Shown here piece after piece: positions 23,090 to 30,533 of a stretch of DNA of 33,455 nucleotides. The stretch is taken from the NCBI GenBank assembly GCA_938074335.1, contig CALJEL010000035.1, positions 1-33,455 of the forward strand. The letters are read 5' to 3'. The translations under genes were made by a program, and so were the position numbers. The DNA comes from an uncultured bacterium. GTDB taxonomy: Bacteria; Nitrospirota; Thermodesulfovibrionia; Thermodesulfovibrionales; CALJEL01. Under the pieces are notes generated by a model that was not told the origin of the DNA, made no database searches, and was given only the letters and a program-made list of their open reading frames with translations. How positions within the stretch are numbered: position 1 is the stretch's first letter; every line of letters starts with the position of its first letter.

Positions 23090-23119
23090 ATAGCGCAGTA
23101 GAGTAGCAGGCAATAATAG

Positions 23120-23220
23120 AGCAGTAGAGCAGCGGAGCAACAGAGCAGCAGTTAAATAATAATATAAAAAATTCTTTAATAAAAACTACTGCACTACAGT
23201 TCTGCTGGTCTGCTGCTCTG
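23120..23220. repeat. two oppositely oriented 8-bp-period degenerate arrays flanking an AT-rich spacer
   Basis: Left AGCAGTAG AGCAGCGG AGCAACAG AGCAGCAG (23120-23151); right CTGCACTA CAGTTCTG CTGGTCTG CTGCTCTG (23189-23220). AACAGAGCAGCAG and CTGCTGCTCTGTT form a 13-bp perfect inverted repeat. Confidence 0.85.
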
Positions 23221-25000: not shown

Positions 25001-27358
25001 ATGATGAAGAGATTGAGACTTGTAGAGTTTTCTGTGGACCATCCGAAACTCATTGTTGCTATTACTATCTTTATAACCATCCTCTTTGCCACACAATTCC
25101 CAAAGATAAAGATAGATACGAATCCAAAGCATATGCTTCCAGCCACATCAGATGTGAGGGTTTGGAATGATGAGGTTGACAGGACCTTTGGGCTTTATGA
25201 GGATGTAATAGTCCTTGGTATAGTGAATGAAAAGGGGGTCTTTAATAAAGACACCCTTAAGAGGATAAAGGGGATTACCGATGAGATATTAAAGATAAAA
25301 GGGGTTGCATCAAGGGATGTGAACAGTTTCACTACAATTACAAATGTAACTGCTGAAAAAGGCACGCTTCGTGTAGCTCCTCTTATGACGGATATCCCTG
25401 AGGATGATAAAGAGATAGAGGCCCTCAGAAAGAGCCTTCTTGAAAATCCCCTCTTTCTGAACCGTATTATTTCAGAGGATGGAAAGACCGCAGCCATCTA
25501 CATACCCCTTGAAAAGGGTGCAAATGGCAAGGAGGTGGCTGATAGAATCAGGGAGATGATCAAAAGGCAAAAAGGTGACGAGAAATATTACATTGCAGGA
25601 GACCCTGTTGCAAGGGATACCTTTGGAGTGGAGATGTTCAAGCTCATGGCAATCTTTGCACCCATGGCAGGTGCTGTGATGCTCATCGTGAGATATTTCA
25701 TGTTCAGGGACTTTTTCCTCTCCGTTACATTAATGATGGATGCAATGATCAGCATTATCTGGAGCATGGGCCTTTTTATTGGGGCAGGTATCCCCATTCA
25801 TATAATGGCCTCAATGAGCCCTGTATTCTTAATGGCAATCGCAACGGACAGTATCCATATATTCAATGAATTCTACTTCCGATTCAGAGAGGTTGGTAAC
25901 AAGAGGACAGCCATAATAGAGACAATGAAGGCTGTTGGAAGGCCTGTAAGGTATACAGCAGCAGCAACCGCAGCAGGATTTGCAGTCTTACTTATCATGC
26001 ACATAATACCTGTTAAGGTCTTCGGTGCACTTGTTGCCTTTGGAACAATAATACTCAGGTTTCTGAGCTTCAGCTTTATACCTGCCATGTTCATGTTTGT
26101 TAAGGAAGAAAAACTTGCCGAGGCGGCAAGGCGTGAGGATATGGAGAAGGGCTCATCAAGGTTTTTAAAAAGACTGGCAGGGCTCGGAACATTTGCTCCA
26201 GAGAAGACCATCTTTATCGGGGCAATTCTTCTTTTAATCTCAATTGCTGGCATGACAAGGATTACCGTGAATAACAACATGGTTGAATGGTTCAAGAAAA
26301 AGAGCGAAATCAGGGTTGCTGACAATGTCCTGAATAATAACCTTGGTGGAAGCTCCCTTGCTTATATTGTTGCTATTGCGCCTGAGGATGAAGATATGAA
26401 GTCTCCTGATGCCTTAAGATACCTTGAAGGTCTTCAGAGACACCTTGAAAGGCTTCCTGAGGTGGGAAAGACCTTTTCTGTAGTTGACCTGATAAGGAGG
26501 ATCAATAGGGTTATCCATGATGATGATCCTGCCAGTGAGAGGATTCCTGATTCAAAAGAGATTATAGGCCAGTATCTCTTTTTATTCAGTATGTCAGCAA
26601 GGCCCTCTGATCTTGACAGCCTTGTTGATTATCCCATGAAAAGGGCAAATATCTGGATACAGCTCAAGACATGGGATGCTCAGGCAATGAGGAATGTGAT
26701 AAAGGCTGTTGAGGAGTATAAAAGGGCGTACAGGACATCCCTGGAATTCAGGCCCGCAGGCATTGCCTATTTCAATCTTGTCTGGAATGATGAGGTTCTC
26801 TGGGATATGGTCAAGGGCTTTATCCTTGCCCTTATAGTTGTCTTTGTGATACTGAGCCTTGATTTCAAGTCCATTAAATGGGCGATCGTTGCCTACGTGC
26901 CTTTGCTTTTTACAATAGTCCTCATTTATGGTGTGATAGGTTACACAGGTAAGGATTTTGATATGCCAGTATCTGTGCTTTCATGCCTGAGTCTCGGCAT
27001 GGCAGTGGACTTTGCAATACATTTTGTAAGCAGATTTAGACAGAGATTGAAAGAACAGGCCTTAGAGTTAGGAGTCCAGAGTTCGGCGGCAGGAGAAGCT
27101 AAAAATCTCGTCACTCGTCACTCTTCACCCGTCACTGATGCATTACTATGGACTGCCGCAAGACCGGGCAAGGGTATTATGCGTAACGCAGTACTTTTTG
27201 CCTCTGCCTTTTCAGTAATGCTCTTTGCACCATTGACACCTTATATAACTGTAGGTGCCTTTATAGTGAGCATGATGACACTGAGCGCATTAATGGTAAT
27301 AATTTACCTGCCAGCCCTGATAACCTTATTACAGGGATGGTTATTAAGGGAGGTATGA
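25001..27358 (+). CDS. RND/MMPL superfamily exporter
   Basis: 785 aa, two 6-TM-like halves, SMSPVFLMAIATDSIHIFNEFYFRFRE and LSCLSLGMAVDFAIHFVSRFRQRL. Confidence 0.9.
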   Translation: MMKRLRLVEFSVDHPKLIVAITIFITILFATQFPKIKIDTNPKHMLPATSDVRVWNDEVDRTFGLYEDVIVLGIVNEKGVFNKDTLKRIKGITDEILKIKGVASRDVNSFTTITNVTAEKGTLRVAPLMTDIPEDDKEIEALRKSLLENPLFLNRIISEDGKTAAIYIPLEKGANGKEVADRIREMIKRQKGDEKYYIAGDPVARDTFGVEMFKLMAIFAPMAGAVMLIVRYFMFRDFFLSVTLMMDAMISIIWSMGLFIGAGIPIHIMASMSPVFLMAIATDSIHIFNEFYFRFREVGNKRTAIIETMKAVGRPVRYTAAATAAGFAVLLIMHIIPVKVFGALVAFGTIILRFLSFSFIPAMFMFVKEEKLAEAARREDMEKGSSRFLKRLAGLGTFAPEKTIFIGAILLLISIAGMTRITVNNNMVEWFKKKSEIRVADNVLNNNLGGSSLAYIVAIAPEDEDMKSPDALRYLEGLQRHLERLPEVGKTFSVVDLIRRINRVIHDDDPASERIPDSKEIIGQYLFLFSMSARPSDLDSLVDYPMKRANIWIQLKTWDAQAMRNVIKAVEEYKRAYRTSLEFRPAGIAYFNLVWNDEVLWDMVKGFILALIVVFVILSLDFKSIKWAIVAYVPLLFTIVLIYGVIGYTGKDFDMPVSVLSCLSLGMAVDFAIHFVSRFRQRLKEQALELGVQSSAAGEAKNLVTRHSSPVTDALLWTAARPGKGIMRNAVLFASAFSVMLFAPLTPYITVGAFIVSMMTLSALMVIIYLPALITLLQGWLLREV
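27062..27134. repeat. paired 7-bp-period arrays inserted in frame in the RND exporter gene
   Basis: TTAGAGT TAGGAGT CCAGAGT TCGGCGG, 17-nt spacer, CTCGTCA CTCGTCA CTCTTCA CCCGTCA. Confidence 0.85.
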
Positions 27359-27359
27359 G

Positions 27360-28187
27360 ATGAGGAGGTTCAGGACTCAAGATTCAGGATTCAAGATTTT
27401 TATTATCTGTTGTCTGTTATCTATTTTCAGTTTCCTTTCTTTTGATGCTATTGCCCTTACTGCAGAGGATATAGTTAAAAGGTCTCAGGAGGCCTTTTTC
27501 TATCAAGGAAAGGACTTTAAGGCAAGGGTGATGATGAAACTTATTAGTAAGGGTGGTCAGGAAAGGATAAGGGAACTTACAATGTTGAGGAAAAACTATG
27601 GAGATACAGGTGGTGAACAAAAGTATTTTATCTATTTCTTCCAGCCAGCCGATGTTAAGGACATGACCTTCATGGTCTATAAGTATCCTGCGAGGGATGA
27701 TGACAGATGGCTCTTCATTCCCGCATTAAATATGGTGAGGAGGATCGCTGCACAGGATAAGCGTTCAAGCTTTGTTGGCTCTGATTTTACCTATGAGGAT
27801 GTATCTGGAAGGGATATTGAGGATGACAGACATGAGATTATAAAAGAAGAAAAACTCAGTGATAAGGATTGTTATGTAATAAAAAGCACACCAAAGGCAG
27901 GCGATGTTGACTACAGCTATAAGATTTCATGGATTGATAAGGTCAATTACCTGCCTTTGAAGGAAGAATATTATGACAAGAAAGGAGAGCTTTATAAGAT
28001 ATTTACAGCCGATGAGATGAAAGATATAAAAGGGTTTCCTACTGTCACAAAAAGAACAATGAAGAACCTCCAGAATGGGCATATGACTGAGGTGGTATTT
28101 ATTAAGGTTGATTACAATATTGGTATTGAGGATAGCCTCTTTTCAGAGCGGTATCTCAGACAACCGCAGAGGAAGTGGATTGAATAG
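27360..28187 (+). CDS. outer-membrane lipoprotein-sorting protein (LolA-like fold)
   Basis: SQEAFFYQGKDFKARVMMKLISKGGQERIRELTMLRKN...KYFIYFFQPADVKDMTFMVYKY...LFIPALNMVRRIA...KRSSFVGSDFTYEDVSGR. Confidence 0.88.
   Translation: MRRFRTQDSGFKIFIICCLLSIFSFLSFDAIALTAEDIVKRSQEAFFYQGKDFKARVMMKLISKGGQERIRELTMLRKNYGDTGGEQKYFIYFFQPADVKDMTFMVYKYPARDDDRWLFIPALNMVRRIAAQDKRSSFVGSDFTYEDVSGRDIEDDRHEIIKEEKLSDKDCYVIKSTPKAGDVDYSYKISWIDKVNYLPLKEEYYDKKGELYKIFTADEMKDIKGFPTVTKRTMKNLQNGHMTEVVFIKVDYNIGIEDSLFSERYLRQPQRKWIE
27369..27426. repeat. 7-bp-period arrays in the signal-peptide region
   Basis: TTCAGGA CTCAAGA TTCAGGA TTCAAGA (27369-27396) followed by TCTGTTG TCTGTTA TCTATTT (27406-27426). Confidence 0.7.
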
Positions 28188-28189
28188 CC

Positions 28190-28480
28190 CTAAAAGAAAA
28201 AGGTCTTTATTAAGAAGGCTACAACTCCCATAAGATTTAATATAACAATGAGATATAACCTGTCTATTCTCTTATTGACATCATCAAAGCGTTTATTGAC
28301 ATCATCAAAGCGTTTATTGACATCATCAAAGCGTTTATTGACATTTGCAAGCTCTGCCTTGATTTCCCTAATCTCACCATGTATGAGGTCAAGCTCACGA
28401 AATACAAAGGTGAAGGGATCTGCCCTGTATAAATACTCCTCTTTTCTTTCTTCTGTTTTCTTTTCCTCTGTCTGTGGCAT
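28190..28480 (-). CDS. small coiled-coil membrane protein with C-terminal TM segment
   Basis: MPQTEEKKTEERKEEYLYRADPF...NVNKRFDDVNKRFDDVNKRFDDVNKRIDRLYLIVILNLMGVVAFLIKTFFF. Confidence 0.7.
   Translation of the reverse strand: MPQTEEKKTEERKEEYLYRADPFTFVFRELDLIHGEIREIKAELANVNKRFDDVNKRFDDVNKRFDDVNKRIDRLYLIVILNLMGVVAFLIKTFFF
28272..28345. repeat. 21-bp tandem repeat, three perfect copies plus a partial
   Basis: TTATTGACATCATCAAAGCGT x3 (28272-28334) then TTATTGACAT; encodes DDVNKRF heptads on the minus strand. Confidence 0.95.
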
Positions 28481-29729: not shown

Positions 29730-30533
29730 TTGAAGGCTGAAAGCAATAATAAGTTTTCTGGTAGTTGCTGACCAACAAAGGATGGTGCAGGTGTGCATCA
29801 CTATGCCTTTGTAGAGAAGGCTCAGATTAATACACTTAAAACAGAGGACTGTTTGTTCTGTGGGGCTCCTTTTCAATATCTTGAAAGATCTCAGGAGATG
29901 ACCTGCCTTTATTGTGGTAAGAAAGAGCAGGGTAACATAAAATGTCCTGATGGTCATTATATATGCGAGGCCTGCCATAACAGTGATTCCATGAGGTTGA
30001 TAGAAGAGATAGTGTTCACCACAACCTCAAATAATCCCTTTGAGATATCTGAACTGCTTATAAATCATCCGGCCCTTCCAGTGCTTGGCTGCCAGCATGC
30101 CTATATTGCTGGTGGTGCTTTAATGGCTGCAATAAAAAATCAGGGTTCAGGGGTGTCTCCAGAGGATATAAAAGAGGTCTTCGCACGTACAGGAAGACAG
30201 GCACAGGGAGGATACTGTGGACTTACAGGCATATGTGGTGTAGTTCCAGCTATTGTAGCATGTTTTTCGGTGCTTACAGGTTCAAGATGTGGCACTGACA
30301 GGCAACAGCAGATTACAATGGAGGCTGCCACCAGGGTTATGAGGGCAATAACAGCCCTTACAGGACCGAGTTGCTGTAAGGCCTATGTGAGGGCAGGCCT
30401 TGAGGTTGCTGTAAGATATCTTGGTGAGAGTCTCGGGATAGTCCTTCCTTTGGAGCGGGTTTCAAAATGCAGGCATTCTTTAAGGCATCCTCATGGCTGT
30501 AGAACAGAGAGGTGCCCTTATTTTGATGCTTGA
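29730..30533 (+). CDS. DUF5714-like Cys-rich protein, putative selenoprotein (TGA at 29769-29771 read as Sec)
   Basis: GGAGG RBS (29717-29721) sits 8 nt before TTG 29730. The frame reads MKAESNNKFSGSC-U-PTKDGAGVHHYAFVEKAQINTLKTEDCLFCGAPFQYL... and joins the ORF-track protein; strong SECIS-like hairpin after the TGA. Confidence 0.78.
29783..29800 (+). promoter_or_regulatory. candidate bacterial SECIS hairpin in the DUF5714-like gene
   Basis: TGGTGCA-GGTG-TGCATCA: 7-bp stem (one G-U), GGUG loop exactly 18 nt after the TGA. E. coli fdhF has GGUUGCA-GGUC-UGCACC with the loop 18 nt after its UGA. Confidence 0.8.

What the first reader, a model, noticed from the sequence alone, without database searches (positions are those of the whole stretch)
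27062..27134. In-frame insertion of paired 7-bp-period arrays inside the RND exporter
Four degenerate heptamers (TTAGAGT/TAGGAGT/CCAGAGT/TCGGCGG) and four others (CTCGTCA/CTCGTCA/CTCTTCA/CCCGTCA) sit next to each other and encode QALELGVQSSAAGEAKNLVTRHSSPVTDA between FRQRLKE and LLWTAARPGKG. Two unrelated 7-mer words arrayed side by side is the same architecture seen at 27369-27426. This looks like an insertion of a non-coding repeat element tolerated in a cytoplasmic loop, not a normal protein repeat.
Basis: partly seen in the sequence, partly recalled or inferred. Interest (0 to 1): 0.6.

Follow-up and report, generated by a model that had tools for sequence, protein, structure and literature searches.

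The report
Heptamer-repeat insert in a membrane exporter
A short DNA element made of two facing rows of 7-letter repeats sits in frame in a floppy loop of a membrane exporter, many related bacteria carry different versions at the same spot, and elsewhere the same kind of repeats frame genes for a small "intervening-sequence" protein, which suggests that these puzzling bacterial repeats are remnants of one widespread selfish element.

Summary
The right array (CTCGTCA x4) is far beyond chance (0 of 2000 shuffles). The left array (TAGGAGT-like) is weak alone but is upheld by homologs. The insert is not strain-specific. Of 86 distinct homologs, 18 carry a 7-bp-periodic insert at this loop (other periods 0-3), with different words; one pair 89-90% identical around the site carries different words. 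AlphaFold makes the loop (691-708) the only internal disordered segment. The typical element is bipartite: two arms of about four heptamers (or octamers), inverted to each other.

Following the class further gave the main result. Genes of the 23S rRNA intervening-sequence protein family (PF05635, "S23") are framed by just such arrays. In relatives 39 of 48 are flanked on at least one side and 30 on both; on plasmids of three phyla 15 of 15 and 13. Transposase controls: 3 of 23 and 0. In the window's own genome one S23 gene lies between octamer arms that recur without a gene at 12 other places read. S23 gene number tracks array abundance (rho 0.61-0.66).

Best reading: an old gene-less (MITE-like) copy of an S23-linked element, kept because the loop tolerates it. 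Mobility and S23's role are inferred.

The parts
25001..27358 (+). RND/MMPL-superfamily exporter gene, 785 aa, host of the insert
   Evidence: ORF; PF03176; HAE3-type profile TIGR00921 matches below its curated cut-off, so the subfamily stays open
27062..27089 (+). left arm: TTAGAGT TAGGAGT CCAGAGT TCGGCGG
   Evidence: sequence; weak alone, 215 of 2000 shuffles as high; corresponding arms are clean in homologs
27090..27106 (+). spacer CAGGAGAAGCTAAAAAT; GCTAAAAATCT is shared with the homolog L011
   Evidence: sequence and pairwise alignment
27107..27136 (+). right arm: CTCGTCA CTCGTCA CTCTTCA CCCGTCA CT
   Evidence: TRF 27107-27136; score 15.4, 0 of 2000 shuffles
27071..27124 (+). codons of residues 691-708, the only internal segment of the exporter model with pLDDT below 50
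   Evidence: AlphaFold2 model on a 44-sequence alignment
27369..27433 (+). second pair of heptamer arrays (TTCAGGA-type, then TTATCTG-type), encoding the signal peptide of the LolA-like gene 27360-28187
   Evidence: TRF; score 16.8, 0 of 2000 shuffles; also arrays in L004, L005, L009, L017, L018, L025 but in no other homolog with sequence there
23117..23220 (+). intergenic gene-less element of the octamer version: arms 23117-23151 (TAGAGCAG-type) and 23185-23220 (inverted)
   Evidence: TRF and period-8 scan; hairpin z -4.85, 0 of 200 shuffles fold as well

Best explanation
The segment is an old, gene-less copy of a small bipartite element: two facing arms of about four degenerate 7-bp (elsewhere 8-bp) repeats around a short spacer. 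Full-length members of this class carry, between the arms, a gene of the 23S rRNA intervening-sequence protein family (PF05635/S23, a four-helix bundle). Gene-less copies look like MITEs (miniature copies that have lost the gene). The exporter copy stays because its length keeps the frame, it encodes no stop codon, and it lies in a disordered cytoplasmic loop. Arrays at this and other sites differ in word, and even in period, between related species, so they are turned over or replaced faster than the DNA around them. Shown here: the arrays, their recurrence at one loop, the disordered loop, the framing of S23 genes by such arrays, and gene-less copies of one S23-framing array family in the window's own genome. 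Inferred: that the elements move, that S23 helps them move, and that this particular copy arrived as such an element.
For: Period-7 inserts at the same loop in 18 of 86 distinct homologs, other periods 0-3. Facing arms: 27 of 56 arrays have an inverse-complement partner within 90 nt, controls 6 each. Close pair L006/L025 with different words; orthologous sites with heptamers in one species and octamers in the other. Only internal disordered segment is 691-708. PF05635 genes flanked by period-7/8 arrays: 39 of 48 on at least one side, 30 on both; control periods 0-4; RAYT genes 3 of 23 and 0; flanks inverted in 36 of 48. Plasmid S23 genes of three phyla: 15 of 15, 13 on both sides, arrays about 12 times denser near the gene. 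PF05635 number against array number: rho 0.61-0.66, n = 101. Own genome: one S23 gene between octamer arms, plus 12 gene-less copies read. Coxiella IVS has heptamers just before its S23 ORF (PMC4990558).
Against: The window copy does not fold as a hairpin (z +1.7) and its left arm is weak. Its word occurs nowhere else in the genome, so no parent copy is known. Word sharing between exporter inserts and S23 arms is only modestly above permuted controls (mean 17.4 against 14.1). Six of 43 array-rich genomes show no PF05635 gene. No target duplication or movement was shown. Gain and loss on the tree cannot be told apart; L022 keeps AGTCAGGAG at the site and may be a deletion remnant.
Confidence: 0.62

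Rival explanations
1. Local birth: replication slippage and quasi-palindrome correction made the arrays in place, with 7 bp favoured by the polymerase; the loop merely tolerates them, and S23 genes sit beside arrays because both collect in tolerant gaps.
For: Heptamers are over-represented in many bacteria and a polymerase-footprint cause has been proposed (cited in PMC4692102). Unit number varies, one CTCGTCA in L011 against four in the window. Words differ between close relatives.
Against: Facing arms are in excess. S23 genes are flanked much more than transposase genes and on both sides. In the own genome a long fixed left end is shared by the S23 copy and gene-less copies on other contigs, which slippage does not explain. 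L013 and L025 share nearly the same insert although their flanks are 71% identical.
Confidence: 0.2
2. REP-like elements moved by IS200/RAYT tyrosine transposases.
For: RAYT number correlates with array number (rho 0.43). Hairpins in intergenic space resemble REPs.
Against: RAYT genes are not framed by arrays (0 of 23 on both sides) and RAYT loci are not enriched in arrays. Eight of 43 array-rich genomes have no PF01797 hit. S23 correlates better.
Confidence: 0.05
3. Protein sites: the paired arrays are binding sites of a global regulator (IHF/HU-like), as proposed for Geobacter metallireducens, and their presence in genes is incidental.
For: Paired tandem heptamers and octamers on opposite strands, with octamer consensus GTTGCTYN, were described so (PMC2700814); the own genome's octamers include GTTGCTCT.
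Against: Words differ between close species at the same site, arrays lie inside coding loops and signal peptides, and counts run from 0 to 340 between genomes of one order; a shared regulator would keep its site. Binding was not tested here.
Confidence: 0.08
4. An ordinary variable protein loop; the repeats are chance or codon-usage effects.
For: The loop varies in length also in homologs without arrays (13-23 aa).
Against: The period is 7 nt, not a multiple of 3, and it is seen at DNA level in 18 homologs against 0-3 for other periods.
Confidence: 0.03

Closest known systems
23S rRNA intervening sequences (IVS) with S23 protein ORF (Coxiella, Leptospira)
   Same: Small element with inverted ends around an S23/PF05635 gene; the Coxiella IVS has tandem heptamers (GACAGAT) just before the ORF, varying in number between strains, and is called selfish (PMC4990558).
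   Different: IVSs lie in 23S rRNA and are cut out by RNase III. Here gene-bearing copies lie between protein genes, and the exporter copy has no gene and is translated.
Paired heptamer/octamer sites of Geobacter metallireducens
   Same: Three to five tandem units per arm, pairs on opposite strands, periods 7 and 8; the octamer consensus GTTGCTYN fits the own genome's octamers (PMC2700814). Multicopy families inside genes without frameshift are noted in G. bemidjiensis (PMC2996986).
   Different: They were read as regulator sites, with no S23 link; the loop hotspot and the change of words at fixed sites are added here.
Heptamer repeats of Xanthomonas, Nostoc, Beggiatoaceae (GGGAATC, GGGGAYT, TAACTGA)
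   Same: Short arrays, often four units, convergent pairs in Xanthomonas, same gene neighbours with varying sequence (PMC4692102; PMC4679880).
   Different: G-quadruplex or translational roles were proposed; no encoded partner was named.
REPIN/RAYT system
   Same: Small non-autonomous hairpin elements tied to a single-copy gene.
   Different: RAYT is a tyrosine transposase; here the framed gene is a four-helix bundle without a known enzymatic domain, and RAYT genes are not framed by the arrays.
Borg tandem repeats in proteins
   Same: DNA repeats in ORFs that make disordered, fast-evolving segments, with a hotspot region (PMC9879509).
   Different: Borg repeats give perfect amino-acid repeats; here the 7-nt unit shifts frame each time and gives no amino-acid repeat.

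Membership tests
Bacterial heptanucleotide tandem repeats (SSR/STRR type) | several tandem units of 7 bp, above chance | tested here: met
   right arm score 15.4, 0 of 2000 shuffles; left arm weak alone
Bacterial heptanucleotide tandem repeats (SSR/STRR type) | same word dispersed through the genome | tested here: not met
   CGTCACTCGTCACT with up to 2 mismatches only at this site; other heptamer arrays of the genome are few
S23/IVS-linked inverted-array element | two arms of 7- or 8-bp units facing each other around a spacer | tested here: inconclusive
   window: arms face each other with a related core but do not fold (z +1.7); homologs L033, L008, L069 fold
S23/IVS-linked inverted-array element | PF05635 gene between the arms (full-length form) | tested here: not met
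   spacer of 17 nt, no gene; would be a gene-less copy. Gene-less copies exist for one S23-framing family of this genome
S23/IVS-linked inverted-array element | PF05635 genes as a class are framed by such arrays | tested here: met
   39 of 48 at least one side, 30 both, 36 inverted; RAYT 3 of 23 and 0; plasmids 15 of 15 and 13
23S rRNA IVS proper | location in 23S rRNA, removed by RNase III | tested here: not met
   lies in a protein gene and keeps the reading frame
MITE | terminal inverted repeats | tested here: inconclusive
   clear in several homologs, not in the window copy
MITE | target-site duplication | not tested
   no pair of near-identical strains with and without the insert was available
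REP/RAYT element | associated Y1 tyrosine transposase framed by the repeat | tested here: not met
   0 of 23 RAYT genes framed on both sides; RAYT loci not enriched
RND/MMPL exporter (host gene) | MMPL/RND profile match | tested here: met
   PF03176 E 1.4e-23

The most novel reading that the evidence does not exclude
The long-unexplained 7-bp (and 8-bp) tandem repeats of many bacterial phyla are the ends and gene-less offspring of one class of selfish element built around the S23/PF05635 four-helix-bundle protein. These elements insert between and even inside protein genes, where they are recoded into loops and signal peptides, and they exchange their repeat words rapidly at fixed sites.
Probability: 0.5. 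Interest if true: 0.86.

Novelty: new variant of a known kind. Interest (0 to 1): 0.72.

Why it matters
Heptameric repeats have been reported in bacteria for decades without an accepted cause. A link to a defined protein family turns this into testable questions: does S23 bind or copy the arms, and do the elements move? It also shows a route by which non-coding repeats become protein parts (a disordered loop, a signal peptide) without breaking the frame, repeatedly at the same place.

Tried and rejected
Strain-specific insertion: rejected. Spread of CTCGTCA arrays in the own genome: none beyond this site. RAYT transposases as the motor: partly correlated but not adjacent and missing in some rich genomes. 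Reverse transcriptase as the motor: no correlation (rho -0.01). Hairpin as a feature of this very copy: rejected (z +1.7). Known RNA family: no Rfam hit in the window. Single unbroken origin of the loop insert: the tree needs 12 changes, at least 8 by starred branches, but gain and loss cannot be told apart. Word sharing between exporter inserts and S23 arms gave only modest support.

Full report
What is there. The gene 25001-27358 is an RND/MMPL-superfamily exporter of 785 aa. Between FRQRLKE and LLWTAARPGKG it has 29 aa encoded by two runs of heptamers. The right run is unmistakable; the left run is weak by itself.

Homologs. Loci were collected by protein similarity; 86 distinct sequences had a readable loop. 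Uninserted loops are mostly 13-23 aa. In 18 of the 86, including the window, the loop DNA has a period-7 score of 8 or more; for periods 4, 5, 6, 8, 9, 10 and 11 the number is 0-3. Words differ: AGGAGTC, AGAAGTC, AGTTCGG, GAGAGTT and AGCAGTC types on the left, GACTC, AACTC and CTCGTCA types on the right. L113 and L050 carry a different, palindromic insert at the same place, and L010 seems to have a further insert nested in its array. L006 and L025 are 89-90% identical around the site but have different words, while L025 and L013, only 71% identical upstream, have nearly the same insert. The window, L004, L006 and L011 share the CTCGTCA word; L011 has one unit where the window has four. On a tree built without the loop the trait needs 12 changes, at least 8 by well-supported branches; direction cannot be read, and one uninserted homolog (L022) keeps AGTCAGGAG at the site, as a deletion would leave it.

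Structure. An AlphaFold2 model (mean pLDDT 87) has one internal segment below 50, residues 691-708, between the helix 655-689 and the helix 710-720. In RND topology this is the cytoplasmic loop between TM10 and TM11 (established knowledge of the superfamily). The insert is therefore a disordered, tolerated loop.

The same architecture elsewhere. The next gene (LolA-like, PF17131) has its signal peptide written in heptamers (27369-27433), as in six homologs; the other homologs have ordinary signal peptides without arrays. L033 has a further array inside an open frame downstream. In 0.93 Mb around the homologs there are 57 period-7 arrays, against 0-5 at four of the control periods (5, 10, 11, 13), 4 at period 4 and 6 at period 6. 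Of 56 tested, 27 have an inverse-complement partner within 90 nt, against 6 for each control. Among 101 related genomes the count of AGT-type heptamer matches ranges from 0 to 340; period 6 is nearly empty. The window's genome has almost none of these but the highest count of the octamer version; the pair at 23117-23220 in the window is one example of that class.

Fixed sites, changing words. At orthologous sites in related species, arrays of different word, and even of different period, take each other's place: L012:3916 heptamers against L015:3234 octamers; L011:9163 octamers against L017:9134 and L025:9231 heptamers. This agrees with the remark on Xanthomonas that repeats stay with the same genes but vary in sequence (PMC4692102).

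The S23 link. A heptamer array of the own genome (G000:C27) stood just before a gene of the 23S rRNA intervening-sequence protein family, PF05635. Searching the 101 genomes for this family gave loci chosen by protein alone; 20 further stretches were taken, partly from array-rich genomes. Of 48 such genes, 39 have a period-7/8 array within 180 bp on at least one side and 30 on both; control periods give 0-4, and RAYT genes 3 of 23 and 0, in a wider 400-bp window. The two flanks match each other inverted in 36 of 48, directly in 15, as complement in 9. The 5' arm ends a median of 8 nt before the start codon and the 3' arm begins around the stop codon. On plasmids, all 15 sampled S23 genes (Cyanobacteria, Azospirillum, Riemerella) are flanked, 13 on both sides; arrays are about 12 times denser near the gene than far from it. 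Some of these genes sit inside gene clusters, between cas6 and cas4 or between the two ribonucleotide reductase genes. Across genomes, PF05635 number and array number correlate with rho 0.61-0.66; RAYT gives 0.43 and reverse transcriptase -0.01.

Gene-less copies. In G000:C2 an S23 gene lies between octamer arms (left end GCTAAAGTAGTGAGTTAGTATGCAAGTGAGTTAG, right arm CTAACTCACTAATTCACTAATTC). About 50 bp beyond it lies a copy with the same left end, a short spacer and the same kind of right arm, without the gene. Eleven more gene-less copies were read at other places of the genome, in either orientation, most with the same left end. This is the pattern of a MITE beside its parent. In G000:C28 the arm beyond an S23 gene reads as the start of the following gene (MDNQFTNSPIHRFTQ), another case of an arm taken into coding sequence.

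Conclusion. The exporter insert is best read as an old gene-less copy of this class, kept in a loop that tolerates it. Not shown: movement, a role of S23, and a parent copy with the exporter's own word. The Coxiella IVS, which carries heptamers just before its S23 ORF (PMC4990558), is independent published support that arrays and S23 belong together. In the paper library I found no statement of the general link; subscription journals are mostly not in that library, so priority cannot be judged from here.

Limits. The S23 sample comes from one bacterial order plus plasmids; size-matched small-gene controls across whole genomes were not run. Array detection is a simple ungapped period score with chosen thresholds. 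Most relatives are MAGs, where repeats can be misassembled, although the signal across many genomes and complete plasmids makes that an unlikely cause.

Noticed in passing
window 27360-27440: The signal peptide of the LolA-like protein is written in heptamer arrays; the same happens with other words in L004, L005, L009, L017, L018 and L025.
   Followed up: partly
window 28272-28344: Three and a half perfect copies of a 21-bp unit (TTATTGACATCATCAAAGCGT) on the + strand, just after the LolA-like gene and within ORFs on both strands.
   Followed up: no
window 23117-23220: Octamer version of the element (TAGAGCAG/CTGCTCTA), a strong hairpin; its words fit the Geobacter consensus GTTGCTYN. Period-8 arrays are frequent in this genome (43 in 303 kb).
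   Followed up: partly
L113 and L050, exporter loop: A different palindromic insert (TGTAGGGGCGAAC...GCCCCTAC) occupies the same loop; L005 may hold a short relative.
   Followed up: no
L238 (G000:C28:8500-10600): The octamer arm beyond an S23 gene forms the N-terminus of the next gene, a P-loop protein.
   Followed up: no
L258, L264, L269: S23 genes with arrays sit inside CRISPR gene clusters of cyanobacterial plasmids (cas6/cas4; cas10/Cmr3).
   Followed up: no
window 29793-30533: This ORF matches the double-selenoprotein MbdU model only over model positions 32-267 of 468, so a UGA selenocysteine codon may cut the predicted ORF short.
   Followed up: no
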